Shown: piece after piece, positions 135 through 17,292 of the stretch
Position numbering within the stretch: position 1 is the stretch's first letter
How the letters are laid out: each line of letters starts with the position of its first letter
Source: Candidatus Gastranaerophilales bacterium
GTDB lineage: Bacteria > Cyanobacteriota > Vampirovibrionia > Gastranaerophilales > Gastranaerophilaceae
DNA length: 43,165 nucleotides
Reading direction: 5' to 3'
NCBI GenBank assembly: GCA_944326515.1
Contig: CALVEI010000012.1
Span: 1 to 43,165, forward strand
Position numbers and translations under genes: made by a program
The notes under the pieces: generated by a model
Seen by the model: the letters and a program-made list of their open reading frames with translations, nothing else
Told to the model about the DNA's origin: nothing
The model's database searches: none

Positions 135-476
135 TTAATTTTGGGACACCTTATTAGAAGATGTTTCTGCCATATACATGTTCATGTACAGTATCTTATT
201 TGCAGTAGCCTTGTCTAAGTTAATAAACTTAAGACCTGCTTTATCTCCTGTTACTCTTACAACTTCCACTTCAGGAGAAGCTTTGATATTGTGATAATCT
301 AAGCTAATTACAAATTTTTCTCCCTTAACAAGCGAACCGTCGTGAACAACAGCAAGACCGCCTCTTGATATGTTTTCAATAGCTATAATACGTTTACGCT
401 TTTCTTTTTCTTTTTTATTGGATACCATGACATATCCGTCACCTTTAGCTATTTCAAACCTTATTGAATCACGTTT
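135..476 (-). other. PilZ domain encoded at the 3' end of the giant adhesin gene
   Basis: Residues 5549-5655 of the adhesin have the PilZ pattern: KRDSIRFEI contains RxxxR (Arg5550 and Arg5554), followed about 29 residues later by NISRGGLAVV, which contains [D/N]xSxxG (Asn5583 to Gly5588). After this come the usual barrel strands ending in VEVVRVTGDKAGLKFINL. In known PilZ proteins these two motifs hold cyclic di-GMP. Both motifs appear intact, so nucleotide binding is chemically plausible. The location, on a protein with a Sec signal peptide, is at odds with the cytosolic pool of c-di-GMP. The domain call rests on motif recognition, not on a profile search. Confidence 0.8.
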
Positions 477-3400
477 AGTTGGCTTGTAAGTTGACTTATC
501 AATATCAGCAAACTCAGGTGTAGTTGTTGTTTTTTGAATTTTGTCATCTTTATATGTCAATCTATAGAAGCTGTTTTCAGTTCTAGGAAGGACAATTACT
601 TCATAAGGGTTATAATGAACAACTGGAGCTTTAGTTTCCAAAGCTATAACATTACCCATATTTAAGGCAAATGAACCTGTTAATTTTGTGTATAGCTGAG
701 AAGTAACAGGTATACCAAAATCATTTGCTATATTTCTATAGTAATCGTTATCAACAATAGTTAGCCATCTGTAGCCGTTTGCAGTATCAACAAAGTGTCC
801 GCCACCTTGACCACCTCTGTTACCATTTCTAAATTCAGCATAATTAGTAATATATCCATCTGATATATGTAAATTCAAATCTTTTGTATCTACATACGCA
901 TTATCAGAATAGAATTTCAACAATTCCATACCACGATTATCAGTAGGTGATGTACTTGCAGAATTCAATGATAAAGTAACATCTTTTGCTTTGTATACTG
1001 TTTCTTTAAAACCGACAGGGTTATTAAATATTGTCATTGTTTGTTCAACATCTTGAGGTTTATAGTTTCTGTCAGATTCTTTTCCACCGGCATTAACAAC
1101 ATCATCAGGAGAAACACCTTGTATATCAAATACAAGTTTGTCACCTTTTCCTACTGTGTTAAAACCTGTAGCTTTAAGATTCTTTTCAGAATCAGGATTC
1201 ATATAATCATTAGCATATAATCTGCCATCTGTAGCATCAAAACCATTTGGTCTATTTTGATTAGACACAACAGAACTAGCTGCATCATAAGCGTGAGCAA
1301 TAATGTTATCAGCTCTCAATGTTACATCAGGTTTGCCATTGCTTTGACCTTTTATGTAAGCATTATAGATATTAAGAGTAGAGTTAGCATCATTCGGATT
1401 AACTCTTGTATCAGGATTAATATCCAATACTCTTATATCTACAGTTTCTGGAGCAACTGATGTAATAGTTATTCTGTCGTGCGGATAAAGAATATCATCA
1501 TCAGGCGCCATATTTGTAACTTTACCCAAATCATATATAGTCAAGTTAGCACCTTTAGAAACAATTTCTAAGTGTTTACCAGCTGTAATTTCTCTTATAA
1601 TAGCATCTCCAGTCAATTCAAGTCCCATATTACCGCGTTTTGTAATAAGTTGCCAGAAATTATCATTATTACCCATACCGCTGATATAAAGATCATTTTC
1701 AGCCATTGCACTTATGGAACCATTATCAAGTTGATAATAAGTAAGCTTATTATCCTTAACACCAATATTGTCACTAGCAATCAATGAAATATTACGTCCG
1801 GTCACATTCGCTTTAGATTTATCTGAAGCTGCATTAATTATAGAGTAACCGCGGAAATATGATTCATCAGCCGGTGTTGGATTTTGATCGGCTTGTTTCC
1901 AATCTGCTGCAGTGAGCATAACATTTCCATCTGATGTAATGTTGCCAACTTTCAAATCAGAATTTTTAGCTCTGATATTAATTAATGCATTGCCGTTATT
2001 AGTTGCATTTGCATTAACAACACCGTTAACTTTAACATTGATTGATTCTGTATAATCGCGAGTTGAAGCATTAACCCCAAAGCCTGACTCTTTTCCTTCA
2101 AGAGCATGTGTATCGGAGCCAATATTACCGTCAGTTACACTAAGATTTAAGTTACCTGATGAAGATATCAATGTTTTATAAGCTTTATCAGGTTTACCCA
2201 AATCATGATTTTGATTTTTATTTTGTATATCAGGATCAACTACTCCGTTAAGAATATCACCGTTAACCTGTGTTATTGTTATGCTTCCATTTTGGGTATT
2301 AATATAGAAATCATTATTACTATCATACTCACCAATTGAAATGTCAGAATTTTCGTTAATTATTTCAATATCTTGTTTGATAGCAGAAATGATACCTTCA
2401 ACGGCTATACCAATTTCTTTAGTTCCTTTGTTAGAAATAGATATTTTACCATCATTGTTAGTTATTCTACCTGTTGTAGCAAGTATAATCGAAGATGTAT
2501 CAGCATCGCTGTTATTATTAATAACTGTCTCACCTTTCTTATTTTGTATACTTCCAGCCAAAGAAATACCTAAAGCACCTTCATTATTAACTGTTAGCTT
2601 ACCATTATTGTTAATAACCTTTGACCCGTTTTCAGTTACAATTCCTGAATCGATATTTTTGTTATCAATAGCAAGATTTCCACCTGCATTTTCAACAAGT
2701 GCGGTATTTTTCAAGGCAATACCATCATCGCCATCATTATCTATAGACATACCGCCTTGATTATTTTTAACAGTACCAGCAATAACAACACCACTTGCAG
2801 CGTTTGTATTGTCTATTACAGTATTTCCTCTGCCAATATTGAGAACTCTACCTAATACAGACAATAACCCTTCACCGCTGTTTGATATTTTCATATTATC
2901 AACACCAGTAGCTTGTGATGTATTTTGTACAGTTGCTGTTTTAGTTATATCTAACGCACCTTTTGTATTGTTGATTGAAATAGCAGAATCTGCACCAGAG
3001 TTTGTCACAGAACCACTTATTTCAGTTCCGCCTTCTCCAGTATTTGTTACAGTTAAGTCTGTACCTGTATTTTCTATTGTTCCTGACACAAGTAATTTTC
3101 CACCATTATTTGTAACAGTTGTACTGCCTTGTGAGTTTTTAACCTCGCCAGATATTGTAGCACCTTGACTACCTTCATTAATCAATGTTGTATTACCGGA
3201 TGCGTTTTCTACGTTACCTGCAATACTAATACCGCTCGTTGTATTTGTATTATCTATCTTTGTATTACCTTTACCTTTATTTAGAACTTTACCTAATATA
3301 GACAACAATCCTTCACCGCTGTTTGATATTTTCATATTATCAACACCAGTAGTTTGTGATGTATTTTGGACAGTTGCCGTTTTTGTAATATCCAATGCAC

Positions 3401-6400
3401 CTTTTGTATTGTTGATTGTAATAGTAGAAGCTGCACCAGAGTTTGTCACAGAACCACTTATTTCAGTTCCGCCTTCTCCAGTATTTGTTACAGTTAAGTC
3501 TGTACCTGTATTTTCTATTGTTCCTGACACAAGTAGTTTTCCACCATTATTTGTAACAGTTGTACTACCTTGTGAGTTTTTAACACTACCTGAAATTGTA
3601 GCGCCTTGTTTTCCATCATTTTTAGCCGTAATATTTCCTGATTTGTTTTCCACAGTACCGGAAATAATTACACCGCTTTCTGCATTTGTATTGTCTATTA
3701 CAGTATTTCCTTTTCCTAGGTTAAATACTTTACCTAATATAGACAACAGTTCTTCACTGCTGTTAGATATTTTCATATTATCAACACCGGCAGTTTGTGA
3801 TGTATTTTGGACAGTTCCGTTGCTTGCAATTGTCAAAGCTCCATTTGTATTTGAAATTGATACAACAGAATCTGCACCAGAGTTTGTCACAGAACCACTT
3901 ATTTCAGTTCCGCCTGTACCGCTGTTTGCTATAAGAATATCATTCCCTTCGTTTTCAACTGTACCGGAAATAGAAAGTTTTCCTGCATTGTTTGTTATAG
4001 AGATATTTTCTACAGTATTATTTATAACGCCACTGATTGCAGTACCATTAGTGCCATTGTTAGTTATAGAAACATTTCCGACCTCACTATCAATTGTTCC
4101 TGCTATAGTAACACCTTGAGAACCATTGTTTGTAATCGTTGTATCTCCGTTAGAAGCTTTAATGATACCGTTAACTACAACACCTGAATCTGTATTGGCA
4201 TTTGTAATATTAGTGTTTCCATAGCTTTCTATCGTTGGAACAACAATACCAGTTTCATCGAGTTTCTTAACAACTTTTATACCGTTTTGTCCATTTATAT
4301 TTAAAACACTCACAGAATCACCATTATTGAACCCTAGGCCATTTTTAATCGAGCCTAAAACTTCAATGAAACCATTTGATTTTATTGTAGTATCAGCCAA
4401 AAGGCTTCCTTGATTAGTAACATTGGCAATAGTGCCTCTATTATCAAATGAACCATTCATTCTGTTATTTTCAAGAGTATTTATAACAAGCTCTTTGTTT
4501 GTTTGGTTATCAATTGAAACTGTTGCATAACCGTCAGTATAAGTAACACTACCGTTACCAGTTACTGAGCCTTTCAAATTTACATTTCCTCCTTCTTGTT
4601 TAGTATTAAACACAAGGAGCTTACCGTCTTTATAAAGTACTTTAATGTTATTTGTATCATTCAAATATGGAGACTTGTCGCTACCGCCAAGATTAACCAT
4701 ATTCTTTTCACCAGTAGTAGGATCTACTACCAAGTTGTTTAACATATCATCTGTTATGGTTAAATTTCTATCGCCATAGCCAGCCTTTAATGTGCCGTCA
4801 ATATTTATACTATTTGCAGTTATATCAATATTTTGACCAGCAATAATTCTATCACCTGCTTTTACATCGAATGATGAATTAGCACTATTATATGTAACAT
4901 TACCTTGAGTTGCTACAATATCTTTTGAATAAACTGAAACAGGAGCATTAAACTCTATATTTCCGCTTTCATTCCATATATCAAACAAATCACCACTAGC
5001 AGTAATAGAACCATTGAAGATAATATTAGAAGCAATAGAATCTTCTAAAGTAGGATTCATATGGTCGTAATAATTATTAATTACAATACCATCTATATCC
5101 CCCTCAGTTTTTAAATAAACGTTATCATTTACCGGGGTTGATGAATTAGCCAGATAATTATAGTTTGTTCCGCCAATAATAAGACCTGCCAATGAATAAT
5201 TATCTAAATTGATATTTTTAAACACTAAGTCTATATTAGAATAATTATCAATACCAAGACCAGCAGTTACAAGACGGAATTCACCACTACCTTTGACGTC
5301 GGCTTTTGTAATACCGTTTAACTGGATTTTAGCATTAGGTACAGTAAGATTAGCAAACTCAATTGCTGCTTTTTCTATATTTAAATCAGAAAGCGGATTA
5401 TCAATCAAATAACTAATTTGATTATTTACTGATGTAAGAGAATTATCTAAAGAGTCTCTGTTATCTTGATATCCTTTATTTACACTTTCAAACTGAGCTA
5501 TAATTGACTCTATGCTGGTTTTACCAGATTGTAAATCATTTATAGCGTTATTTTTAGCTTCGGTATCATTTCCTAGAACTATTTTCCCGTTATATAAAGA
5601 GTAATCATAACCATTTATTGTTTCAGTTGAAAATTTACCGTTTGCTGTATTATAAGCACTTTCAATTGCGCTTACTTTTTTGTCAAGGTTTTCTTGGCCG
5701 TTAAGAACATCTGTTGCAATTTGTTTTATGCCGGCAGAATTTCCATCATCATCAAGTGTACCTGCCTTTTCCCAAATTTTATCAAACAATTCCTGAGATA
5801 TCTGGTTCTCGCCTGAGCCTACAACGGCACCTTGCACTTCTGTTTTAAATTGGTTTTGAGCATCCGTAATAGAAACAGCATCATTAACACTGTTTAATAA
5901 ATTTGTAATTTCAGTAAGTTGTGCTTTATAAGTATCTATCGCCGTTTTATTAGCAGTAATTTGATCATCAAGTTGGGCAATTTTTTCTTCTAATTTTTGA
6001 GCTTCAGATTGAAGACCTTCTATTGTATCTTTAGTTAAATCCTTACCTGATATTTTAGTAGCATCAACAACTTTATACTCCTCATCTTTGATAAAGCCTT
6101 TTAATTTTTGCATATCGATTTTTCCGTCTTTGTCGATATACATATATCTTTGAGCTGAATCTCCAGCTTTTATCACCCCATCCAATTGAAGAGCATTAGT
6201 TAATTTATTGTCGATTCTAGAATATCTATTTACAGTATGGATAGGAATACCAAAAACAATTCTACAGGTTAGATCTTCTATCATATCAGATGTTAATTGA
6301 CTATTTCCTGCTGAATAATTAACTATAACATCCTTAGATGAAATTATATCTGCATTTTTAGCAACATTCATATTATTATTAACAGTATAATTAACATAAC

Positions 6401-9400
6401 CATCAACAGCTGATGTCGGAATAGCAGCATCTACTGTTACTTTAACATCCTGGTCTAAAATGTTTATTGATTTTTTCATAAAATCAAATTGTGCTAAAGT
6501 ACCGGCTTTGATGTGTCCTTGATTATTCAAATTATTATTAACGTTTAATGTGATTTTAGCCGTACCATCAATATCTCTAAAACCAAAGTGATCAGCTTTC
6601 AAATTAACATCGTTTTTAAGGTTATTTGACGAATCAAGTGCTATATTTAGTGAATCAGCACTAACTGTTGCATTATTTAAGACATTAAAATTATTGTTAT
6701 TGGTGACAGTTAAATTAGAATGACCATCGACATTTGCAACAAAACCTGCTCCACTGGCATTTACGCTTTGACTAAATGCGGAACTTGTATCTACATCGAT
6801 ATTCATATCAGAAGTTGCGGTTATTGATGAATTATTAACATTAACCTCAGATGTTTGAGCAACAGAGTTGTTTATTGTTGTTTTAGTTTCAGCTATACCG
6901 CCTTCAACTCTTATTGTATAAGCGATATTTTCATTGTTTTTTGTCCCAATATTCGCTGTTGATGAAATATCAACATCACTTGCCTTTATATCTGAACCAT
7001 TTTGAATATTTACTTTTGAATTTGACGTAATATCATTGTGCAAGCTACCACCTGAATGAACAATAACTCCGCTTTGTGTTGATTTACGCTTCATTAATAC
7101 TTCATTAGAATTGTTTGCATCAAGCTTAAATTTACCTTTTGAGTTTATTTTGGCACCGTTAACATTTATATTGTTTGATGCATTTACTGTGTTACCCGAA
7201 TTACTTTGAGAGATTGCAAGTACAGCGCCACTTTTATCCCCAGTTACAGATTCTGCTGTATTACCTGCACTTGCCAAAACCGTTAAACCATTATCGTAGT
7301 TTTCATTCGTCGCATTAGCCGTAATGTTAACGTTTGAATCACCGGTTGTTGAAGTTGTTATTTTAAAATTATTAACTGAAACAATTGCACCATCATTTGA
7401 TTCAATTGAATTATATGTATCTCTGTTTACGGTTGATTTAACATTCATATCCCCCATTGCAAGAGTTCCGCCGACATTTATTGTCGTATCTGTATCAACA
7501 GAGGAAACAGTTCCATTTACGGCAGAACCCACAAGACTTATTTGCATTTTTGATATTTGCGCATTTGTATCGGCATCATCATTTAATTCAACAACTGCAT
7601 TTTGAACTATTGTGTTGTTGCCTGAAATGTTGATTGTATTGCTGCCTTTAACGTCTGCATTCATGTTCAAAGTTTGAACACTTACTGCACCAATGCTGCT
7701 GTTGTTTGAACCTATAACAGCATCTCTGTCAGCTTTAGATTTAATATTGAGGTTATTTGTCGTAAAATTGCCAGTATTTAGCTTAGCTTCAGTTTTTGAA
7801 TTAACGCTTGCGTTAAGGTTAGTAACACTCACATCTGCAAGTGAAACAGCTGATTTTTGAGATATAATCTCAGCTTTTATAGAAGCTGAATCATTATTAT
7901 TAGATTTTTTTACGCCAGATAAGATATTGGTTGTGCCTTTATTATTTACTGCTATTTTGGAATTATCAATTCCAGCTATGAACTCAGAATTAACAACAGC
8001 ACCTTGATTTGCAACATCAACACCAATTATTGAATAAGTACCAAGACTCATAGTTGTTGTAGCATTAACTCCATCAGATGAAGCAATAATATTCATATTG
8101 TTAGAATCAATTGTACCTGTTGCATTAATCAATGCTTTAGTAATAGCATCTGATTTGGTTCTATTTACAGTGACATCAACAGTTAAACCACCAACAGCCT
8201 CAGTATCTAATTTTGATACCAAATTGCTTGTATTAGATGATTTAATGTCTACATCATTTGCATCAATATCAACCTTGCCTGAAACTAATGCTTGAACATT
8301 ATTTGATGTTTCTGCTATTGCTACAGAAACATTAGCCCCAACACCTGCGCCAAGAACACTTAAGACATCAACATCAATATTATCATTAGAATTTGCATTT
8401 ACTAATAAATTACCCTTTGAATTGATTGTAGCATCAGAAACTTTTGCAATAGTTTGGGCCGCATTATTAAAGTAACCAACTCCGCCTTTTATTCCTACTG
8501 CCCCAAGAGTAGCATCAACAACATCAACTTCAGCTTTTATATTAGATGCTGCATCAACTTTAACATTACCAGCATTAGCAGTTACATTACCACCAGAAAT
8601 TTCAGCATTAGTTTTGTATTTCATATTAGTAACTAAAACACTAGCACCAACAGCGGCAAGACCTGCACCAAGGCTGATATTATTTGAACTAAAAGTATCG
8701 TCACTGTAACCTTTTAATTCGTTTGATGCAGCAACTTTTATTGCATCGCCGTCAGAATTTTTGCCAGTAGCAGCAACGTTACCGTTTATATTTGCTTTTG
8801 TACCATCTTTTATAGTTTCGGATGTTAAATTATAAGAAGCAGTCTTTGTTTGACCATTCTTTTCATATTGAATATTATTTGAATTTCCATCAATTTTAGC
8901 AAGAGAATCTTTAATTTTAGATGACTCAAGTTCAGAAGTGTCTGAAAAATCAACTTTTCCACCTATTGAATTGACAACAACATTTGCAGCAATGCCAGCA
9001 ACACCACCAACTGCATTAGCTATAGAATTGTCCATTCCAATTACAGAATCTGCTAAAACTTCAACATTTTCTGCATTAATTTTTCCGCCTTGCGTAGTTA
9101 ACAATTCAGATATCACGGCATTGTTAATCACATTTACATCAACACTTGCACCAACAGCCTCAGTACCTACAGCAAGCAAACCGAGTTTGTTATCAACTAA
9201 TATTTGATCATTAGCTGTAACACTAACCTTATCAGATGCATTCATCGATTTGTCTTTAGCGTCAATATATGCCTTAGTTGCATTTTCAATATAATTAACT
9301 ATTGTGTTAGAACCAACAGAAGCACCGAACTTAGCAACTGAAACCCCAATATTAGTATTTCTAAGATTTTCGTCACTATCAGCAACAACTGAAACTGTAG

Positions 9401-12400
9401 AAACACCATCTAAAGATGTATTATCAATATAAGAAAGTAAATTATTTTCAAATGAATTTACAACTGTATTAACTACAGCACTAACACCTGCACCAACACC
9501 ACCACCTATGTAAGCATTATTGCTTATATTGGTATTTTGCTTAGCAAAAGAGGACACACTACCCCCTTGTATAGAAGAATCGGCAATGTAAGCAGTTACA
9601 TTGTTATTAATAACATTAACAAGAACATTCGCTAAAACATTTGCACCAATACCAGCTAAACCACCGGAAGCCAAACTGTCAGAAATATCAATATCTGATT
9701 CAGCATTTACTGATGTAGATTTGGCCTTTGTAATAGTTGTTCCATTAATTTTTGCATGAATATCATTATCAAAAATGTTAGTAACAGTATAACCACCGAC
9801 AGAAGCACCTGTTCCTGCTCCAGTAGCACCAATAATACCAGCATTAACATTAGCATTAGTTTTAGCAAAAAGTGAAGTTGCGGCACCATTTACAGAGCCA
9901 CCTTCACCATTTACAGAGCCACCTTCAATTTTTGCTTCTGTTTTACCAGTAAACTGGTTTACTACAGGAATTACGTTAACACCGCCACCAATTGCAGCAA
10001 CAGAAGCTGCAGCCAAAATATCATTGATATAAACAGAATTTATAGCATTTAAAATAACGTTTGAAGCATTTTCAATATCGGTGTCTACAACATGAGCTAA
10101 TACATTATTTTCAATAACATTAGCATTTTCAACAGCACTTACTGCGCCGCCTGTTACAGCAGCAGCAATACTAAATACAACGGTATTTAAGTTAAATATG
10201 TCATTTGCAGAAACATTAACATCCCCATTTTTAATTGTAGAATTTTCAACAACAGCTTTTGTCGTACCAGAATAAATATTATTTACACCGGTAATTCCAA
10301 CACCAGCTGTACTGCCAAATGTAGTACTAATCACAGCATCATAAGTGTTCATTGAAGAAGTAGCATTAACATTCAGACCTTCCGTAGAAGAAACTACTGC
10401 ATTATTTACATATGCGCTTACAGATGTTGATACAACATTAGCAATAACATTGGCACCAACGCTTACTCCACCACTACCTGCGACATTTACTATACCAACC
10501 AAAGGTAATAAAGCTGTCACATCGGAAGAATTTATAGAGTCTTTTCCAAATAAAGAACCAATACCAGTTGTTTCTTTATCTTTATTAAAATCATTGTTGG
10601 CTTTTACATCAATCTTGCCATCAGTAGTTTTAAGTGTAGTATTTTCAACACCTGCATTAACCTCAGATGCCATTGTATTTGAGATAGCTACACCATCTAC
10701 AGACACAGCACCGCTACCAGTAATCAATGCAATATTGGCTTTGAAGTTTTGATTATTATTTGCAGAAATCAAAACATCATCAGCAACATTGATTTCTCCA
10801 GCTTTTTGACCATTAGCAGCATTTTTACCAACAACAGCATTTACTTTATTAGCCAACACATCAACATAAACAACACCGCCAACGCTTGCTCCGCCAGAAG
10901 CACCAACACCTATATTCACAGATTCTACATCCATAGAATCTGTGGCATCTACAGTTAATGTTCCATTAGAATCTATATTTACACCGTTTCCGATGTATGC
11001 ATTAGTTGTATTTGCTACAATATTTGAGTTGATAGAACCATTGACAGAAGCCGCACCTGCCCCACCAACAATAAACATAATTGATTTGTAAACCTGAGAA
11101 GATTCGGCATCTACATTTATGTTACCAACGTTTGAAGCAGTAGTACCAATACTTGCCCCATTTGCAATATAAGCATTAACATCGCTAACATTAACATTAG
11201 AGAAGACTGAACCACCAACAGCAGCTGTTCCTGCTCCAGTAACGTTTCCAACTATTACATCCGCAACAGTCTTATTCGAAGCCAAAACGTCAACAGAGCC
11301 GGCATTTTGAATTTCGACATTTGAGCCAATATATGAATTCACATTGTTTATAACATTTTTAGAAATTAAAGATCCTGACACACCTGCAGTATTACCACCA
11401 GCGATATCAAAGGTCATATCCCAGTTTTCAAAACCATCAGAACTAGCAATATCTTCACCGGCTTCAACTTTTTCTGTTAAAGAGCCTAAAGTGATATCAG
11501 ATGGATTTTCTGCACCAAATATATTTTTAGCACTAGCTTCAACTTTTATATTTCCACCCTTGGAAATTGTAGTATTGTCAACATAAGCATTAACATTTTT
11601 AGTGTAAACATCAGCTAAAATAGAACCACCTACGCCAGCAGAACCTCCTGTCGCAGCAATCGTACCACCTCTACTTCTAGATTGTGTATTATCTGATGCA
11701 ACTACATCAATATCATTTGCTGAAACTGTAGATTTTTTTACACTGTCTTTATCAATTTTGGCAGTTGTAGTATTACTAACAACATTCACACCAACATTTG
11801 CAGCTGCAGCAACTGTACCAGATCCAGAGATTGCAGCAGCAACTGGAATAATATCTATATTGCCATCCGAAGTTGATTTAACAGTTAATTTTCCTGTTGA
11901 AGTCACATTTGAACCCAAAACCTGAGCAGAGTTATTGCTTAAAAGTGTGTTAGATAGAACGTTAGCCCCAATAGTTGCAACACCTGCATTAGAAGCAGCA
12001 CCTACAACTGTAACACCTTGAATAGAATTATCATAATCTGCGATAACATTTGTTGTTGCAGCACTTGTTACATTTGAAGAAATAATTGATGCATTAACAT
12101 TATTTTGAATAACATTTACAATTCCGTTTACAGAAACTGGAATACCAGAACCTGTCTGAACTCCCATATTTGCAGCTAAGAAATACAGATCCTCGTTATT
12201 TTTAGCATTAACATCAATAGAATTTGCATTAATATTAGAATTATTTTGTATTGCCGCTGTTACAGTATTATTAATAACACTCACAATTGCCCCGATACCT
12301 ACACCAACACCTGTTGAAGCAGTAGAAAAGCCTAAGGCGCCAGCTGTATTAATATTTCTGAAATTATTATTCGCAAAAACATCTAAATCACCTGATGCAA

Positions 12401-15400
12401 CAATTGTAGAATTATCAACAATTGTAGAATTATCAACAATTGCAGAAACCTCATTTTCAATTATGTCAGTGGCCATAGCACCAGAGAATGTATAAGCACC
12501 AGTAGCCCCATTTACAACTACACCACCTACGCCAACAGATACAATATCTTCTGTTAATCTAGAAGCATCTTTGTTAGCTGCAACTGAAACGTTATTTAAG
12601 TTATTCAATGTGGAAGTTTGAATTTTTGCTTCAGTATTTTTATTGATGATATTTAAATTACCACCCATGCCGGCACCAACAGATGTCGAACCACCTTTGC
12701 CTGCACTAACAGCCAATCCACCTGCACCTTTATATGCAGTTGAATGATTTTCTGCATCAACATCAACATCAATTTTTCCGCCCGCATTATTTGAAACAGT
12801 GGCATTTTTAATTGAAGCAGCCACAGTATTTTCAAGAACATCAGCATTGAATGAGCCACCGGCTACTACAGTTGTTGTAGTATCATCTTTATCTTTTTTA
12901 CCTACTCCAACACCAATTGCAACCTGAATATTATCATTGCTTTCATTAGCCTTAACATTCAATTTATTGTTATCTGTTAAGTTTTTGTTGAATATGATAT
13001 TTGTGCCATCGATATTTGTGCCATCGATATTTGTGCCATCGATATTTGCGATTGTTTGGTTAGAATTCTGAATAAAATTAACAGCAGCACCAGCTCCTAC
13101 AGTTGCCGCATTAGCAACACCACCACCAATATTCAAAGATTTTGTAGTCTGGCTTGCTTCCACATTTACGTTATTACCAACATTAATTGTAGCATTACCA
13201 ATCTCTGCCTTTACAACAGACTCGTTAATTTGTGTATTAACAGAACCTGCTGCTGCAACAGATATATTGCTTCCCTGACCTTTAGAGGCATCTAAATTAT
13301 CTAAAGAGCCAGCTTCTTTTCCTGTAGAACCTTGATATTTAACATCATTGCCATTAGCGTCCTTTAAAGTAGTTTCACCTGACACTAAATTTTTGCTATC
13401 AGAATCAACCTTATAATCCTTACCGTCTACAGAAATATTTTTGTCTGTAGATACAGAAGTGTCAGTGGATGTTGAAGCTAATTTGTTTTTTATTTTATTG
13501 AATACATCTCCTGTTTTTGATAATGCAGAATTCAATATTCCACCTGAAGAAGATTCAGGCTTTTTAACTTTAACACCACCAGCGAACGCACCAGCAAAGG
13601 CTAGGTTAAGAGATTGAGTTCTACTATCAGCATTTACAGTTAAACTATCATTTAAAGTTATTTCGGCACCATCAGCAATAGTTGCAGAGACCGCTCTATC
13701 AAACAAACTAACATTTACAGACGCTCCAACAGCTCCACCTGATGAACTGCTTCCACTACCACCCTCTAATTCTTGCTCAGAGGTTGCACCTGCGAATAAA
13801 ATATTAGATATACCATCATTTATAGTTGTTGCTTGTTCGTTTAAAGACAACAAACCTGATGTTTCATCAATTCCACCAAAATTACTAATAGTAGGAGAAG
13901 ACAAATCAGGATCAAACCCTACATCAAAATTTCCATCGGTAGGTAAATCATCCCATATTTTATCCCAAGAGAATAAATTATCCTCTGCTTTTGCAATCTC
14001 ATTTAATTTTGCACCACCTACTTTAACATTTAAATTATTAGCATTTATTAGTGCTTTTCCAACAGAAGATGATGTTGTACCATCAAAATTTTGTACTGTA
14101 ACACTACCTGAAATAGAAAAACCATCTTTGCCAGATGCCTTGCTGCCAGTATTTACAACAGTAACAAATTGATTTTCAGTTCCTGATAGTACATCAACAT
14201 TACCATTTGCGCTAACCTTAGCATTGTCATCAATCAATGCTTTTGTATTGTTAGTTACGCTTTCAACAATAACATTACCGCCAACACCATTTGCACCAGA
14301 TACTGCACCCGAAGGCAAAATCAACAATTTGTTGATATCACCTGCTGCGTTGTACTGAACAGTTTTATTAGCAGCATTAACTATAACATCGCCACCAGAC
14401 ACATCTGCATATTGACCAATTTGTGCAACTGTATCATTTTTGACAGCTGAAGAAATCACAGAAGCTGACAATCCCATACCCTCTGTTGTTTTTGATGTAG
14501 TTGCCGCCCAGTTATTAAAGAATCCTGCTAAGCCTTTAGAATCTTTGACACTAGTTTTAAATCCTGTTAAAACATTACTAATATCGGCAGATACTTCTCC
14601 AACAGGGTTTGTTATACCTTGTAAAAGAAGACGAATATCCCAGTCTTCACCCCATTCTGCTTTTATATTTCCAATAGCATCACTAGGCAAATTCGTTAAG
14701 TCGTAGCCAGTTTGCAACAAATTCAAAATGAATTCTATTGTTGCACTGTTTCTAGGCAATTCAGTTGTGGCGTTTACATCCAACTTATTATTTGCAACAA
14801 CTGTTGCGTGATTTGTATCCGTACCAGATTCAATCACAGCTTTTGTTGAATTGTTCTGTTCATTAACAATAACAGCAACACCTGGGTTCGGTATAAAGCC
14901 AGATACACCGGAACTTCCACTACCGTCTTTTTTACTTTCAATTTTTACATTAGACGTCGCATTATTAACTGTTAAATCTATTGTGTTTGCATTGACCTTA
15001 ACATTGTCAGCATGTACAGATGCATTTTTACCAATAGTTGCATTTGTATTAACATTAGAATCATTAATAACTGTTGCAACACTAACATTTGGCAAACCTG
15101 ATGTGTCAATAATAGGTCCATTGCCGCCCATATCCAAAAGTCCAGCAAATTTATCAACAACTTTGGATAAAATTTGTGATTTCATTTTATCTATGAAATT
15201 TTTCTTAGGTGCATCCGATGTTACATCAGCCTTTGCAATAGTAGAACCCATATAAAGATTTTGTGCGTTTACAGACACACTACCTTTATCGTGAGTGTTA
15301 ATTTTAGTGTCTATTAATGCACTGGTATTTATATGAGTATTATTAATATTAACAGCAACTGCAGCACCTGAATTTGCATCAGGGGTTATATTAGCCAAAG

Positions 15401-17120
15401 CTTGAACATTAGAAGATATACTTGAGTGATTAACCGCATCTACTTCTACATTAGCAGCTTCGACAATAGCTCCAGAATGTATTGCAGCAGTAGTATCAGC
15501 TTCAACTTGATTAGCCAAAATTATAACTTGGATATTAGGTATTCCTACAACTTTGTCAATAGTTGCGCCAATAGTTGAAGTTGGATTTTTTATCTTAATA
15601 CTATGAGCATTTTGTGATTGAGCGTGTAAATTTAAATTATTGCCTGCATTAATTTTTGCACCATTCATTACATCAACAGACGAAACAGTCTTTGAACCTA
15701 ATGCATAATAAAGTTCTTGAGTTGTATCAAGACCAGGTGCATACTTAGAAGCTGATTTATATAAAGTGTTAGCAACTGCATTTGAACTCAAATTAACATC
15801 ACCACCGGATATTAATTCGGCCCCAGAATTAATATTTACAGTAGCCTTAGCTCTTGCGCCTTCAAAGTCAAATTTTTCACCAGTAATAGCACCTTCAATC
15901 ATTTGTCCAAAAGAGCTAGTAAACATACTATCCAAAATAGTAGTATTTGTTGCAATGTAATCAACTTTACTTGTAGCACTTATATCAATACTATTAGATG
16001 CTTTGAGAATTGCGTTGCTTATATCCACGGTAGCAAAATTAGTATCATTGTGAGCATTTGCATTTGTAGCATCACTTGGAATTGAATTTTGTATTGTAGT
16101 TTTTAAGACAGAAGTTAAATAATCGCCATCAACGCCTAGTTTTTGCAGTTCTTCAGGAAGTAAATTTTTATCAAGCCAATTTCCGGTGTTTTCATCGAGT
16201 AAATCTTCAACTATATATTCTTTACCATATACAGAAATTTTTTCTACTATGCCTGGATTTACAGCTTGTTTAATGGATTGAGCTTTAATAACTATATTAC
16301 CGTTAGGATCTTTAGAAAATCCTGAACCACTTTTAATATCATTACTTACAAGTGCATCAAAAAGTTTGCCAGCAGCCTCTGTTGAAGCAAGCTTTGCATT
16401 AACATTTTGACCGCCGTTTGTAACTGCATTATTGTTGACACCAGCAAGAATACCGGCTTTGTCGCCTGTTGTTTGACCAACAACAACTTTTTGAGCCATT
16501 AACTCAACATCACCTCTTGCAATGATTTTGCCGTTAATCTCAATGCTTTTATTCATGTCAGAAGCTTTTAAGACCTCTAAATTATTATTATGATCATAGC
16601 CTCCGCCAATGAACTCATTTGTTCCGGTAGAAATCCCTGTGTTCTTAACATAATCCCAATACCCTTGTTGTGTAGGAGAAATAGCAGTTAAAGAGCCAAC
16701 ATTCAACACCCCTGAAGCACCAACAACCATGCCCTCGGGAGAAACAAATATAGCATGACCACCTATATTGCCATTACTTAAGACACTGTTCAAAATACCA
16801 TTAATTATAATTTGGGTATCAACAAGGTTAACAAATTTGCTAATATCACCGCCATTTTTTAATGCAAAAATAAGATTTGCAACATCTCCCTCAGAAAGGT
16901 TAAAGTTAGTATAATGCTTAAAACCAAAGTCACCACTGTTAAAATCTGGTCTGATATTAAATTCTGTATTATGTCCGTTATTAATCGGATTTGATTCAAT
17001 ATTACCCGGAATGCTACCGGTAATATCTGATGCAAATGCAGGCAATACCATCGTTTGCTGCATTAAAAATAAGAAAGTTAAAAATGATGCAAAAAACTTC
17101 TTAAAACAAATATTTTTCAT
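135..17120 (-). CDS. Giant two-partner-secretion filamentous adhesin (TpsA / FHA-like) with C-terminal PilZ domain
   Basis: This is a 5,661-residue exported surface protein, probably an adhesin. Residues 1-30 form a Sec signal peptide (Lys-rich start, hydrophobic core, cleavage near AFA-S). Residues 31-150 match the TPS secretion domain of the filamentous-haemagglutinin family, with NGILNS, then SPEGMVVGAS and LNVGSLTA where many relatives have NPNGI. The body is Asn/Gly/Val/Thr-rich beta-helix-type repeat. It is interrupted by a predicted alpha-helical segment at about residues 3685-3905 and, further on, by three 147-residue repeats. Residues 5549-5655 look like a PilZ domain. There is no frameshift over 17 kb. 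The start is supported by an AGGG ribosome-binding site and by the signal peptide that follows. The partner transporter is the divergent gene at 17293. FHA-like proteins act in adhesion or biofilm; the ligand here is unknown. I see no CdiA-type toxin tip or immunity gene. Confidence 0.93.
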   Translation of the reverse strand: MKNICFKKFFASFLTFLFLMQQTMVLPAFASDITGSIPGNIESNPINNGHNTEFNIRPDFNSGDFGFKHYTNFNLSEGDVANLIFALKNGGDISKFVNLVDTQIIINGILNSVLSNGNIGGHAIFVSPEGMVVGASGVLNVGSLTAISPTQQGYWDYVKNTGISTGTNEFIGGGYDHNNNLEVLKASDMNKSIEINGKIIARGDVELMAQKVVVGQTTGDKAGILAGVNNNAVTNGGQNVNAKLASTEAAGKLFDALVSNDIKSGSGFSKDPNGNIVIKAQSIKQAVNPGIVEKISVYGKEYIVEDLLDENTGNWLDKNLLPEELQKLGVDGDYLTSVLKTTIQNSIPSDATNANAHNDTNFATVDISNAILKASNSIDISATSKVDYIATNTTILDSMFTSSFGQMIEGAITGEKFDFEGARAKATVNINSGAELISGGDVNLSSNAVANTLYKSASKYAPGLDTTQELYYALGSKTVSSVDVMNGAKINAGNNLNLHAQSQNAHSIKIKNPTSTIGATIDKVVGIPNIQVIILANQVEADTTAAIHSGAIVEAANVEVDAVNHSSISSNVQALANITPDANSGAAVAVNINNTHINTSALIDTKINTHDKGSVSVNAQNLYMGSTIAKADVTSDAPKKNFIDKMKSQILSKVVDKFAGLLDMGGNGPIIDTSGLPNVSVATVINDSNVNTNATIGKNASVHADNVKVNANTIDLTVNNATSNVKIESKKDGSGSSGVSGFIPNPGVAVIVNEQNNSTKAVIESGTDTNHATVVANNKLDVNATTELPRNSATIEFILNLLQTGYDLTNLPSDAIGNIKAEWGEDWDIRLLLQGITNPVGEVSADISNVLTGFKTSVKDSKGLAGFFNNWAATTSKTTEGMGLSASVISSAVKNDTVAQIGQYADVSGGDVIVNAANKTVQYNAAGDINKLLILPSGAVSGANGVGGNVIVESVTNNTKALIDDNAKVSANGNVDVLSGTENQFVTVVNTGSKASGKDGFSISGSVTVQNFDGTTSSSVGKALINANNLNVKVGGAKLNEIAKAEDNLFSWDKIWDDLPTDGNFDVGFDPDLSSPTISNFGGIDETSGLLSLNEQATTINDGISNILFAGATSEQELEGGSGSSSSGGAVGASVNVSLFDRAVSATIADGAEITLNDSLTVNADSRTQSLNLAFAGAFAGGVKVKKPESSSGGILNSALSKTGDVFNKIKNKLASTSTDTSVSTDKNISVDGKDYKVDSDSKNLVSGETTLKDANGNDVKYQGSTGKEAGSLDNLDASKGQGSNISVAAAGSVNTQINESVVKAEIGNATINVGNNVNVEASQTTKSLNIGGGVANAATVGAGAAVNFIQNSNQTIANIDGTNIDGTNIDGTNIIFNKNLTDNNKLNVKANESNDNIQVAIGVGVGKKDKDDTTTTVVAGGSFNADVLENTVAASIKNATVSNNAGGKIDVDVDAENHSTAYKGAGGLAVSAGKGGSTSVGAGMGGNLNIINKNTEAKIQTSTLNNLNNVSVAANKDASRLTEDIVSVGVGGVVVNGATGAYTFSGAMATDIIENEVSAIVDNSTIVDNSTIVASGDLDVFANNNFRNINTAGALGFSTASTGVGVGIGAIVSVINNTVTAAIQNNSNINANSIDVNAKNNEDLYFLAANMGVQTGSGIPVSVNGIVNVIQNNVNASIISSNVTSAATTNVIADYDNSIQGVTVVGAASNAGVATIGANVLSNTLLSNNSAQVLGSNVTSTGKLTVKSTSDGNIDIIPVAAAISGSGTVAAAANVGVNVVSNTTTAKIDKDSVKKSTVSANDIDVVASDNTQSRSRGGTIAATGGSAGVGGSILADVYTKNVNAYVDNTTISKGGNIKVEASAKNIFGAENPSDITLGSLTEKVEAGEDIASSDGFENWDMTFDIAGGNTAGVSGSLISKNVINNVNSYIGSNVEIQNAGSVDVLASNKTVADVIVGNVTGAGTAAVGGSVFSNVNVSDVNAYIANGASIGTTASNVGNINVDAESSQVYKSIMFIVGGAGAASVNGSINSNIVANTTNAYIGNGVNIDSNGTLTVDATDSMDVESVNIGVGASGGASVGGVVYVDVLANKVNAVVGKNAANGQKAGEINVADDVLISANNNQNFKANIALITGSGAVSVDGVAISNTMASEVNAGVENTTLKTTDGKIDVKANNDFNKDKETTGIGSLFGKDSINSSDVTALLPLVGIVNVAGSGGVSVGANVIANVVSTSVSAYVNNAVVSSTEGLNVNATSSMNTYDAVISTTFGSTAGVGITGVNNIYSGTTKAVVENSTIKNGDVNVSANDIFNLNTVVFSIAAAVTGGAVSAVENANVIENNVLAHVVDTDIENASNVILNAINSVYINDILAAASVAAIGGGVNVIPVVNQFTGKTEAKIEGGSVNGEGGSVNGAATSLFAKTNANVNAGIIGATGAGTGASVGGYTVTNIFDNDIHAKINGTTITKAKSTSVNAESDIDISDSLASGGLAGIGANVLANVLVNVINNNVTAYIADSSIQGGSVSSFAKQNTNISNNAYIGGGVGAGVSAVVNTVVNSFENNLLSYIDNTSLDGVSTVSVVADSDENLRNTNIGVSVAKFGASVGSNTIVNYIENATKAYIDAKDKSMNASDKVSVTANDQILVDNKLGLLAVGTEAVGASVDVNVINNAVISELLTTQGGKINAENVEVLADSVIGMDNSIANAVGGVAGIAANVVVNSIGGKVDFSDTSELESSKIKDSLAKIDGNSNNIQYEKNGQTKTASYNLTSETIKDGTKANINGNVAATGKNSDGDAIKVAASNELKGYSDDTFSSNNISLGAGLAAVGASVLVTNMKYKTNAEISGGNVTANAGNVKVDAASNIKAEVDVVDATLGAVGIKGGVGYFNNAAQTIAKVSDATINSKGNLLVNANSNDNIDVDVLSVLGAGVGANVSVAIAETSNNVQALVSGKVDIDANDVDIKSSNTSNLVSKLDTEAVGGLTVDVTVNRTKSDAITKALINATGTIDSNNMNIIASSDGVNATTTMSLGTYSIIGVDVANQGAVVNSEFIAGIDNSKIAVNNKGTTNILSGVKKSNNNDSASIKAEIISQKSAVSLADVSVTNLNASVNSKTEAKLNTGNFTTNNLNIKSKADRDAVIGSNNSSIGAVSVQTLNMNADVKGSNTINISGNNTIVQNAVVELNDDADTNAQISKMQISLVGSAVNGTVSSVDTDTTINVGGTLAMGDMNVKSTVNRDTYNSIESNDGAIVSVNNFKITTSTTGDSNVNITANATNENYDNGLTVLASAGNTAESVTGDKSGAVLAISQSNSGNTVNASNNINVNGAKINSKGKFKLDANNSNEVLMKRKSTQSGVIVHSGGSLHNDITSNSKVNIQNGSDIKASDVDISSTANIGTKNNENIAYTIRVEGGIAETKTTINNSVAQTSEVNVNNSSITATSDMNIDVDTSSAFSQSVNASGAGFVANVDGHSNLTVTNNNNFNVLNNATVSADSLNIALDSSNNLKNDVNLKADHFGFRDIDGTAKITLNVNNNLNNQGHIKAGTLAQFDFMKKSINILDQDVKVTVDAAIPTSAVDGYVNYTVNNNMNVAKNADIISSKDVIVNYSAGNSQLTSDMIEDLTCRIVFGIPIHTVNRYSRIDNKLTNALQLDGVIKAGDSAQRYMYIDKDGKIDMQKLKGFIKDEEYKVVDATKISGKDLTKDTIEGLQSEAQKLEEKIAQLDDQITANKTAIDTYKAQLTEITNLLNSVNDAVSITDAQNQFKTEVQGAVVGSGENQISQELFDKIWEKAGTLDDDGNSAGIKQIATDVLNGQENLDKKVSAIESAYNTANGKFSTETINGYDYSLYNGKIVLGNDTEAKNNAINDLQSGKTSIESIIAQFESVNKGYQDNRDSLDNSLTSVNNQISYLIDNPLSDLNIEKAAIEFANLTVPNAKIQLNGITKADVKGSGEFRLVTAGLGIDNYSNIDLVFKNINLDNYSLAGLIIGGTNYNYLANSSTPVNDNVYLKTEGDIDGIVINNYYDHMNPTLEDSIASNIIFNGSITASGDLFDIWNESGNIEFNAPVSVYSKDIVATQGNVTYNSANSSFDVKAGDRIIAGQNIDITANSINIDGTLKAGYGDRNLTITDDMLNNLVVDPTTGEKNMVNLGGSDKSPYLNDTNNIKVLYKDGKLLVFNTKQEGGNVNLKGSVTGNGSVTYTDGYATVSIDNQTNKELVINTLENNRMNGSFDNRGTIANVTNQGSLLADTTIKSNGFIEVLGSIKNGLGFNNGDSVSVLNINGQNGIKVVKKLDETGIVVPTIESYGNTNITNANTDSGVVVNGIIKASNGDTTITNNGSQGVTIAGTIDSEVGNVSITNNGTNGTAISGVINNTVENISITNNAGKLSISGTVENEGNDILIANSGTGGTEISGSVTNSGADSVVSISNTNGALTIASNGTVQNTSQTAGVDNMKISNSSEELLSILGKVFNLGKGNTVIDNTNAESGVIISGTVENKSGNITAKNDGKQGATISGSVKNSQGSTTVTNNGGKLLVSGTIENTGTDLTVTNTGEGGTEISGSVTNSGAASTITINNTKGALDITKTATVQNTSQTTGVDNMKISNSGEGLLSILGKVLNKGKGNTKIDNTNTTSGISIAGNVENASGNTTLINEGSQGATISGEVKNSQGSTTVTNNGGKLLVSGTIENTGTDLTVTNTGEGGTEISGSVTNSGADSAISINNTKGALDITKTATVQNTSQATGVDNMKISNSGEGLLSVLGRVLNIGRGNTVIDNTNAASGVVIAGTVKNNQGGMSIDNDGDDGIALKNTALVENAGGNLAIDNKNIDSGIVTENGSKVINNNGKLTVNNEGALGISLAGSIQNKKGETVINNNSDADTSSIILATTGRITNNDGKISISNKGTKEIGIAVEGIISAIKQDIEIINENSDISIGEYDSNNDFYINTQNGSITITQVNGDILNGVVDPDIQNKNQNHDLGKPDKAYKTLISSSGNLNLSVTDGNIGSDTHALEGKESGFGVNASTRDYTESINVKVNGVVNANATNNGNALINIRAKNSDLKVGNITSDGNVMLTAADWKQADQNPTPADESYFRGYSIINAASDKSKANVTGRNISLIASDNIGVKDNKLTYYQLDNGSISAMAENDLYISGMGNNDNFWQLITKRGNMGLELTGDAIIREITAGKHLEIVSKGANLTIYDLGKVTNMAPDDDILYPHDRITITSVAPETVDIRVLDINPDTRVNPNDANSTLNIYNAYIKGQSNGKPDVTLRADNIIAHAYDAASSVVSNQNRPNGFDATDGRLYANDYMNPDSEKNLKATGFNTVGKGDKLVFDIQGVSPDDVVNAGGKESDRNYKPQDVEQTMTIFNNPVGFKETVYKAKDVTLSLNSASTSPTDNRGMELLKFYSDNAYVDTKDLNLHISDGYITNYAEFRNGNRGGQGGGHFVDTANGYRWLTIVDNDYYRNIANDFGIPVTSQLYTKLTGSFALNMGNVIALETKAPVVHYNPYEVIVLPRTENSFYRLTYKDDKIQKTTTTPEFADIDKSTYKPTKRDSIRFEIAKGDGYVMVSNKKEKEKRKRIIAIENISRGGLAVVHDGSLVKGEKFVISLDYHNIKASPEVEVVRVTGDKAGLKFINLDKATANKILYMNMYMAETSSNKVSQN
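2762..4084 (-). repeat. Three tandem 441-bp (147-residue) repeats within the adhesin gene
   Basis: The same landmark (TCATATTATC) recurs at 2891, 3332 and 3773, exactly 441 bp apart, and the surrounding sequence aligns in register. Each unit encodes 147 residues with segments such as GTIENTG, GGTEISGSVTNSG and GVDNMKISNS. The two units nearest the 3' end of the gene are nearly identical over about 145 bp (2998-3143 against 3439-3584, two differences seen by eye). The third has diverged more. This suggests recent duplication or gene conversion. Unit boundaries are approximate. Confidence 0.9.
5400..6060 (-). other. Alpha-helical / coiled-coil island inside the adhesin
   Basis: Residues about 3685-3905 switch from beta-helix composition to Glu/Lys/Gln/Leu-rich sequence with heptad-like spacing (for example EAQKLEEKIAQLDDQI). 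Other helical stretches follow up to NNQISYLID. The segment separates the long N-terminal repeat region from the NG-rich C-terminal repeats. It could be a hinge, stalk or oligomerisation element. No named domain was recognised. Confidence 0.6.
9886..9927 (-). repeat. Two tandem copies of a 21-bp unit in the adhesin gene
   Basis: The 21-base unit at 9886-9906 is repeated exactly at 9907-9927, giving a duplicated GGSVNGE-type heptapeptide. The copies keep the reading frame. Confidence 0.8.
12403..12438 (-). repeat. Two tandem copies of an 18-bp unit in the adhesin gene
   Basis: An 18-base unit is repeated exactly (12403-12420 and 12421-12438), producing a VDNSTI duplication in the protein. It is in frame. 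Confidence 0.8.
12996..13050 (-). repeat. Three and a partial copies of a 15-bp unit in the adhesin gene
   Basis: The unit GATATTTGTGCCATC occurs at 12996, 13011 and 13026, with a partial copy after it, encoding repeated GTNID pentapeptides. The unit length is a multiple of three, so copy-number change would not break the frame. Confidence 0.85.
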
Positions 17121-17292
17121 ACAAAATCCCTATTTTATAACTTATTAAACCAGTTTAAATTAACCCCAAAAGTGTTTCAGCAAATTATAACAAATTATCA
17201 CGATTTCTTTAAAAATCGTTACATGCTATTACAAACAACAAGTTTTAAGTTAGTATATACAAGTGTCTCTGAAAAGAAGTGGAAAAGGGTTA
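17121..17292. promoter_or_regulatory. Divergent promoter region between tpsA-like and tpsB-like genes
   Basis: This short region must serve both the adhesin (leftward) and its transporter (rightward). For the adhesin, the minus strand carries a perfect extended -10 (TGTTATAAT, plus-strand positions 17184-17192) about 65 bases before the start codon. For the transporter, TGCTATTAC at 17224-17232 is a weaker extended -10 candidate. A 7-bp inverted repeat (ACGATTT 17200-17206 with AAATCGT 17213-17219) lies between them and could be an operator. An 8-bp palindrome GTATATAC sits at 17253-17260. All assignments are by eye. Confidence 0.5.

What the first reader, a model, noticed from the sequence alone, without database searches (positions are those of the whole stretch)
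135..476. A complete PilZ (c-di-GMP-binding) motif on the C terminus of a Sec-exported TPS adhesin
The last about 110 residues of the 5,661-residue adhesin contain RxxxR (RDSIR) and NxSxxG (NISRGG) in the correct order and spacing, followed by the expected barrel strands. PilZ domains normally sit in the cytosol, where c-di-GMP is made, yet this protein has a signal peptide and a TPS domain. Possible meanings: the C terminus, translated last, gates export while still inside the cell; it is a periplasmic plug like the prodomain of FhaB; or the fold is reused for another ligand. I know of no established precedent for this arrangement.
Basis: partly seen in the sequence, partly recalled or inferred. 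Interest (0 to 1): 0.82.

Follow-up and report, generated by a model that had tools for sequence, protein, structure and literature searches.

The report
Secreted adhesin ending in PilZ domain
A giant secreted surface protein of a gut bacterium, and a whole family of its relatives, ends in a PilZ domain, the fold that normally senses the messenger c-di-GMP inside the cell; this suggests that these bacteria hold or release their adhesins through a sensor built into the adhesin itself, which has not yet been tested.

Summary
The last ~110 residues of the 5,661-aa TpsA adhesin match Pfam PilZ (6.1e-8, above cut-off). The AlphaFold core superposes on c-di-GMP-bound YcgR and Alg44. RDSIR and NISRGG are both present. 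The N terminus has a signal peptide and an LktA-type TPS domain; a TpsB pore gene lies head to head with it.

It is not a one-off. In Gastranaerophilales gut bacteria a PilZ profile hits 192 of 382 genomes of the class, nearly all in one family. Complete TpsA proteins of 935-5,661 aa carry the domain at the extreme C terminus. In 50 of 59 large ORFs it follows a low-complexity linker (median 194 residues, mostly DX or PX repeats), though not in the window's protein. Small signal-peptide PilZ proteins also exist, one kind head to head with TpsB. The ligand motif is kept in ~90% of 128 exported sequences and lost in at least four lineages, while fold and position persist. LapG is absent.

Best reading: a C-terminal retention or gating domain, analogous to the FhaB extreme C terminus or the CdrA hook, whose hold depends on ligand. 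Domain and architecture are shown; ligand, location and mechanism are inferred. No precedent found in the open papers searched.

The parts
135..17120 (-). tpsA-like gene, 5,661 aa: signal peptide, LktA-type TPS domain, very long repetitive passenger, C-terminal PilZ
17028..17120 (-). signal peptide, MKNICFKKFFASFLTFLFLMQQTMVLPAFA-S (by inspection)
   Evidence: crude signal-peptide rule passed
16470..16961 (-). TPS domain, NCBIfam NF012204 (LktA-family filamentous adhesin, FxxPxG)
   Evidence: 4.8e-39; the only one in the genome
492..668 (-). conserved non-repetitive junction before PilZ (..APVVHYNPYEVIVLPRTENSFYRLTYKDDKIQKTTTTPEFADIDKSTYK..); takes the place of the low-complexity linker of most relatives
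   Evidence: alignment A3; linker scan, (no low-complexity linker in the window's protein)
165..491 (-). PilZ domain (residues ~5544-5652)
459..473 (-). RxxxR motif, RDSIR
   Evidence: the two R kept in 114 and 115 of 128 exported relatives
357..374 (-). [N/D]xSxxG motif, NISRGG
   Evidence: S 128/128 and G 127/128 in exported relatives
17263..19302 (+). tpsB, outer-membrane transporter (POTRA_2 at protein 172-245, ShlB 307-566, Omp85), divergent from tpsA
17121..17262 (.). 142-bp intergenic region between the two divergent genes, presumed promoters (not analysed)

Best explanation
The PilZ domain is the C-terminal retention or gating module of this TPS adhesin family. Shown: signal peptide plus TPS domain at the N terminus, PilZ as the last domain, a TpsB gene next door, and a ligand motif under constraint. 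Inferred: the chain is threaded N terminus first through Sec and TpsB. The last ~110 residues fold into a compact PilZ barrel on the inner side of the outer membrane, at the end of a flexible tether in most relatives, and stop the adhesin from leaving, as the FhaB extreme C terminus and the CdrA hook do. Binding of c-di-GMP or a related nucleotide by the RxxxR/[ND]xSxxG pocket would change the stability of this knob, and so whether the adhesin stays on the cell or is completed and shed. The small signal-peptide PilZ proteins would be free-standing versions of the same module working with TpsB. Where the nucleotide meets the domain (periplasm, surface, or cytosol just before export) is not known; the periplasm is my first choice.
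For: Domain and fold. Always the last domain (tail 1-48 aa) in complete proteins of 935-5,661 aa with signal peptide: 57 of 59 large ORFs by a crude rule, the other two being a broken 5' end and a start called too far upstream; TPS domain confirmed by NF012204 in all 9 PilZ-bearing relatives tested. Tether: 50 of 59 large ORFs have a low-complexity run of 21 to >380 residues, median 194, mostly DX or PX repeats, directly before PilZ. Motif constraint without choosing sequences by motif: over 128 exported sequences the five motif columns rank 1, 2, 11, 15 and 25 of 126 by entropy, P = 6e-5. Motif lost on at least 4 branches while fold and position stay: an anchoring role that does not need the ligand. 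Stand-alone signal-peptide PilZ with intact motif, one kind head to head with a POTRA_2/ShlB gene as in the window. No C-terminal cysteines for a disulfide hook and no LapG, so the known CdrA solution is missing. c-di-GMP synthesis is likely present: 7 GGDEF domains here, 7-10 in each of 33 relatives.
Against: No experiment. c-di-GMP is not known outside the cytosol (stated for ExlA in PMC8472254), so constraint on the motif is awkward for a periplasmic site. The window's own protein lacks the low-complexity tether. Complete TPS proteins of 820-1,045 aa without PilZ exist in the same genomes, so the domain is not needed for secretion as such. The RxxxR part of the model has pLDDT < 50, so the ligand pocket is not modelled. 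The model of the last 280 residues is of low confidence.
Confidence: 0.45

Rival explanations
1. Cytosolic gate: the PilZ domain, translated last, meets c-di-GMP in the cytosol while the rest is already in Sec and TpsB. Bound PilZ folds and stalls the chain, leaving the adhesin spanning the envelope on the surface; when c-di-GMP falls the domain unfolds, passes Sec and the adhesin is finished or shed.
For: Motif constraint with the ligand where it is made; 7 GGDEF domains; in CdrA and ExlA high c-di-GMP also means retention (PMC8472254); linkers of median 194 residues would be long enough to cross the periplasm (inference).
Against: Small signal-peptide PilZ proteins with the same intact motif appear to be exported whole and would make little sense here. 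A folded domain stuck in Sec is expected to be harmful (general knowledge). The window's giant protein has a junction of only ~60 residues.
Confidence: 0.2
2. Fold reuse: PilZ outside the cytosol binds another ligand (another nucleotide, a phosphate-bearing envelope sugar, or part of TpsB), and has nothing to do with c-di-GMP.
For: Exported location; motif lost in several lineages although all sampled genomes carry GGDEF domains.
Against: In ~90% of exported sequences exactly the residues that bind c-di-GMP in Alg44 and YcgR are among the best conserved columns.
Confidence: 0.2
3. Surface sensor or sticky tip: the adhesin is fully exported and the PilZ domain sits outside on its stalk, binding extracellular cyclic dinucleotides or nucleotides from lysed neighbours.
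For: Long acidic repeat stalks resemble the surface stalks of other adhesins (analogy from general knowledge); signal-peptide PilZ proteins exist.
Against: TPS adhesins of the linear type leave N terminus first, so the last domain is the one expected to stay in; the small PilZ proteins have no TPS domain to take them out.
Confidence: 0.1
4. Pure structural plug: the barrel only blocks TpsB; the motif is a relic.
For: Fold and position kept where the motif is gone.
Against: Motif columns are constrained across many genera and in the divergent small proteins.
Confidence: 0.05

Closest known systems
FhaB (filamentous hemagglutinin) prodomain of Bordetella: proline-rich region plus 98-residue extreme C terminus (PMC8263021)
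   Same: TPS adhesin whose last ~100 residues follow a low-complexity region, sit inside the outer membrane and control processing and release
   Different: The FhaB paper read names no PilZ or c-di-GMP; here the last domain is PilZ with a ligand motif. Sequence relation to the FhaB C terminus was not tested.
CdrA-CdrB with LapG/LapD, Pseudomonas aeruginosa (PMC5422565, PMC8472254)
   Same: TPS adhesin retained through its C terminus, release set by c-di-GMP
   Different: CdrA senses c-di-GMP indirectly: LapD sequesters the protease LapG that cuts a disulfide-shaped hook. Here no LapG, no C-terminal cysteines; the putative sensor is part of the adhesin.
ExlA-ExlB, Pseudomonas aeruginosa (PMC8472254)
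   Same: TPS protein held in TpsB at high c-di-GMP, with no LapD role and an unknown link
   Different: The paper reports no PilZ on ExlA; the protein is a pore former, not a giant adhesin
Alg44 PilZ and YcgR PilZ (PDB 4rt0, 4xrn, 5y6g)
   Same: Fold and ligand motif
   Different: These act on the cytosolic side; here the domain is on an exported protein
LktA-family filamentous adhesins (NCBIfam NF012204)
   Same: TPS domain type of the N terminus
   Different: The family model covers only the N-terminal domain; the PilZ end is an added feature

Membership tests
PilZ domain family (PF07238) | profile match above the curated cut-off | tested here: met
   33.4 bits vs 22.5; 52 of 52 aligned relatives match
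PilZ domain family (PF07238) | beta barrel of PilZ type | tested here: met
   VIA-align Z 13.1 to 5y6g (rmsd 2.8, 112 aligned), the 33 best rows all PilZ; Foldseek best 4rt0, 1.6e-4
PilZ domain family (PF07238) | RxxxR and [D/N]xSxxG ligand motif in order | tested here: met
   RDSIR 5550-5554, NISRGG 5583-5588
PilZ domain family (PF07238) | binds c-di-GMP | not testable with these tools
   needs a binding assay
PilZ domain family (PF07238) | cytosolic location | tested here: inconclusive
   signal peptide and TPS domain on the same chain, and signal-peptide stand-alone relatives, point outside; the final place of the C terminus is unknown
Two-partner secretion TpsA | signal peptide and N-terminal TPS domain | tested here: met
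   NF012204 4.8e-39; Pfam TPS model no hit at 0.1; signal peptide by inspection and crude rule
Two-partner secretion TpsA | cognate TpsB gene | tested here: met
   POTRA_2 + ShlB gene divergent at 17263-19302
Two-partner secretion TpsA | beta-helical passenger | not tested
   repetitive sequence only; no model of the passenger made
CdrA/LapA type c-di-GMP retention (LapD/LapG) | LapG protease (PF06035) in the genome | tested here: not met
   no match in the 98% complete genome
CdrA/LapA type c-di-GMP retention (LapD/LapG) | disulfide-shaped C-terminal hook | tested here: not met
   only cysteines at residues 5 and 3619
FhaB-type prodomain | sequence relation to the FhaB extreme C terminus | not tested
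   compared as architecture only (PMC8263021)

The most novel reading that the evidence does not exclude
A family of exported c-di-GMP receptors: PilZ domains that work outside the cytosol, fused to or alongside TPS adhesins, so that a cyclic dinucleotide controls adhesin retention directly at the transporter, without LapD/LapG.
Probability: 0.3. Interest if true: 0.92.

Novelty: new variant of a known kind. Interest (0 to 1): 0.78.

Why it matters
c-di-GMP control of TPS adhesins is known only through an indirect relay (CdrA-LapG) or with an unknown link (ExlA). Here the putative sensor is covalently part of the adhesin, in a widespread group of gut bacteria whose surface biology is almost unstudied. 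If the domain binds c-di-GMP, either c-di-GMP acts outside the cytosol or an export intermediate is sensed from inside; both would be new. The small stand-alone versions give a tractable protein for the test.

Tried and rejected
Assembly or frameshift fusion: rejected, same join in many independent genomes. Chance motif: rejected. LapG-type control: no LapG found. TPS proteins seemingly without PilZ: most were contigs ending inside the repeat linker; five were genuine, 820-1,045 aa. Link between motif loss and loss of c-di-GMP synthesis: none visible, GGDEF domains in all 33 genomes searched. Model of the last 280 residues: mean pLDDT 44.8, only the PilZ core usable. The PilZ tree has few columns (126) and long branches, so the count of motif losses (4-5) is approximate. 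Weak A1 hits in two other genomes of the phylum (G429, G591) were not inspected.

Full report
Check. The ORF at 135..17120 (-) encodes 5,661 residues. Its last 171 residues match Pfam PilZ at 6.1e-8, 33.4 bits against a cut-off of 22.5. RDSIR lies at window 459-473 and NISRGG at 357-374. The N terminus carries a signal peptide by inspection and the NF012204 TPS domain at 4.8e-39. The neighbouring divergent gene is a TpsB. This is the only NF012204 protein in the genome; two further PilZ proteins found there, one of them next to an flhA-like gene, lack a signal peptide by inspection and look cytosolic.

Fold. AlphaFold2 on 52 aligned sequences gave mean pLDDT 72.7, with a good barrel core and helix and a poor N-terminal stretch that holds RxxxR. 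Foldseek's best match is the Alg44 PilZ with c-di-GMP, 1.6e-4; VIA-align's best is YcgR PilZ with c-di-GMP, Z 13.1, and the 33 best-ranked rows are all PilZ. A profile against PDB sequences finds a Legionella protein (Lpg0364) and Alg44 with the motif residues aligned.

Relatives. The organism belongs to Candidatus Gastranaerophilales, non-photosynthetic gut relatives of cyanobacteria, judged from the titles of the nearest records. A PilZ profile built from these ends finds matches in 192 of 382 genomes of the class, in 29 of 97 genera, almost all in the window's own family plus one genus of another family; some of the weakest hits are cytosolic PilZ proteins. In a wider draw of the phylum only two genomes outside the order matched, weakly. 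In complete genes the domain is always the last, 1-48 residues from the end, on proteins of 935 to 5,661 residues with signal peptides (some loci are the same gene fetched twice). TPS domains were confirmed in all nine PilZ-bearing relatives tested and in one PilZ-less TPS protein. Fifty of 59 large ORFs have a low-complexity run just before PilZ, median 194 residues, mostly DX or PX repeats. The window's protein and its closest kin have instead a conserved non-repetitive junction of about 60 residues.

Stand-alone exported PilZ. Proteins of 151-238 residues with a signal peptide and a PilZ domain follow TpsA-PilZ genes in several genomes. In one genus of a sister family such a gene stands head to head with a POTRA_2/ShlB transporter gene, the same layout as in the window. 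Their motif is intact although the rest of the domain is divergent.

Motif. Over 128 exported sequences not chosen by motif, the five motif columns rank 1, 2, 11, 15 and 25 of 126 by entropy (P = 6e-5); the two arginines are present in 114 and 115. Several lineages have lost the motif yet keep the domain at the same place. On a rough tree the cytosolic domains separate from the exported ones (support 99) and the motif loss needs about five changes, at least four.

Mechanism. Known TPS adhesins are held through their C termini: FhaB by a prodomain that ends in a proline-rich region and a 98-residue extreme C terminus (PMC8263021), CdrA by a hook that LapG cuts under c-di-GMP control (PMC5422565; PMC8472254). 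This family has a PilZ domain in the same place. The window's protein lacks C-terminal cysteines, and the genome lacks LapG. GGDEF domains are present throughout. I therefore read the domain as a retention or gating knob whose hold depends on a ligand, most likely c-di-GMP or a relative. The constraint on the motif says that a ligand matters; the lineages that lost it say that the fold serves even without. The weak point is place: the ligand is made in the cytosol while the protein is exported. Cytosolic sensing of a stalled chain and extracellular sensing remain possible, with lower weight because of the small exported proteins and the order of TPS export. Shown: domain, motif, architecture, distribution, constraint. 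Inferred: retention, ligand, place.

Novelty. No open paper found describes exported PilZ domains, TPS adhesins with PilZ (three papers hold the words; I read passages of the ExlA one, which describe no such fusion), or Melainabacteria with PilZ. The library lacks most subscription journals, so this is not proof. Each half is known; the combination is a new variant.

Noticed in passing
L042-L053, L080-L137; contig ends L182, L185-L190: Most relatives have long (DX)n, DP, EP or PTEP-type repeats before PilZ; many metagenome contigs end inside them, so these adhesins are systematically truncated in assemblies.
   Followed up: partly
L055, L056, L057, L150, L153, L154: A second giant TpsA family (3.9-4.6 thousand residues) in the same genus keeps a PilZ-like end but has lost RxxxR and the N/D of the second motif.
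   Followed up: partly
L012:1501-1845; L198:734-4636: A 171-aa ORF with R to C in RxxxR looks like a decayed TpsA-PilZ remnant; in L198 a copy with broken motif lies beside an intact one.
   Followed up: no
L071, L072, L073, L075: Reading frames of the giant adhesin are interrupted shortly before the PilZ end (short ORFs of 208-296 aa, 1,340 aa in L075); decay, sequencing error or phase variation not told apart.
   Followed up: no
L179, L180, L183, L184, L052:1364-3826: Complete short TPS proteins (820-1,045 aa) without PilZ in genomes that also have PilZ-ended ones.
   Followed up: partly
window 17263-17775: TpsB has about 170 residues before its first POTRA domain, matched by no Pfam family.
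   Followed up: no
L002:1471-2079: A cytosolic PilZ protein sits next to an flhA-like flagellar gene in the same genome.
   Followed up: no
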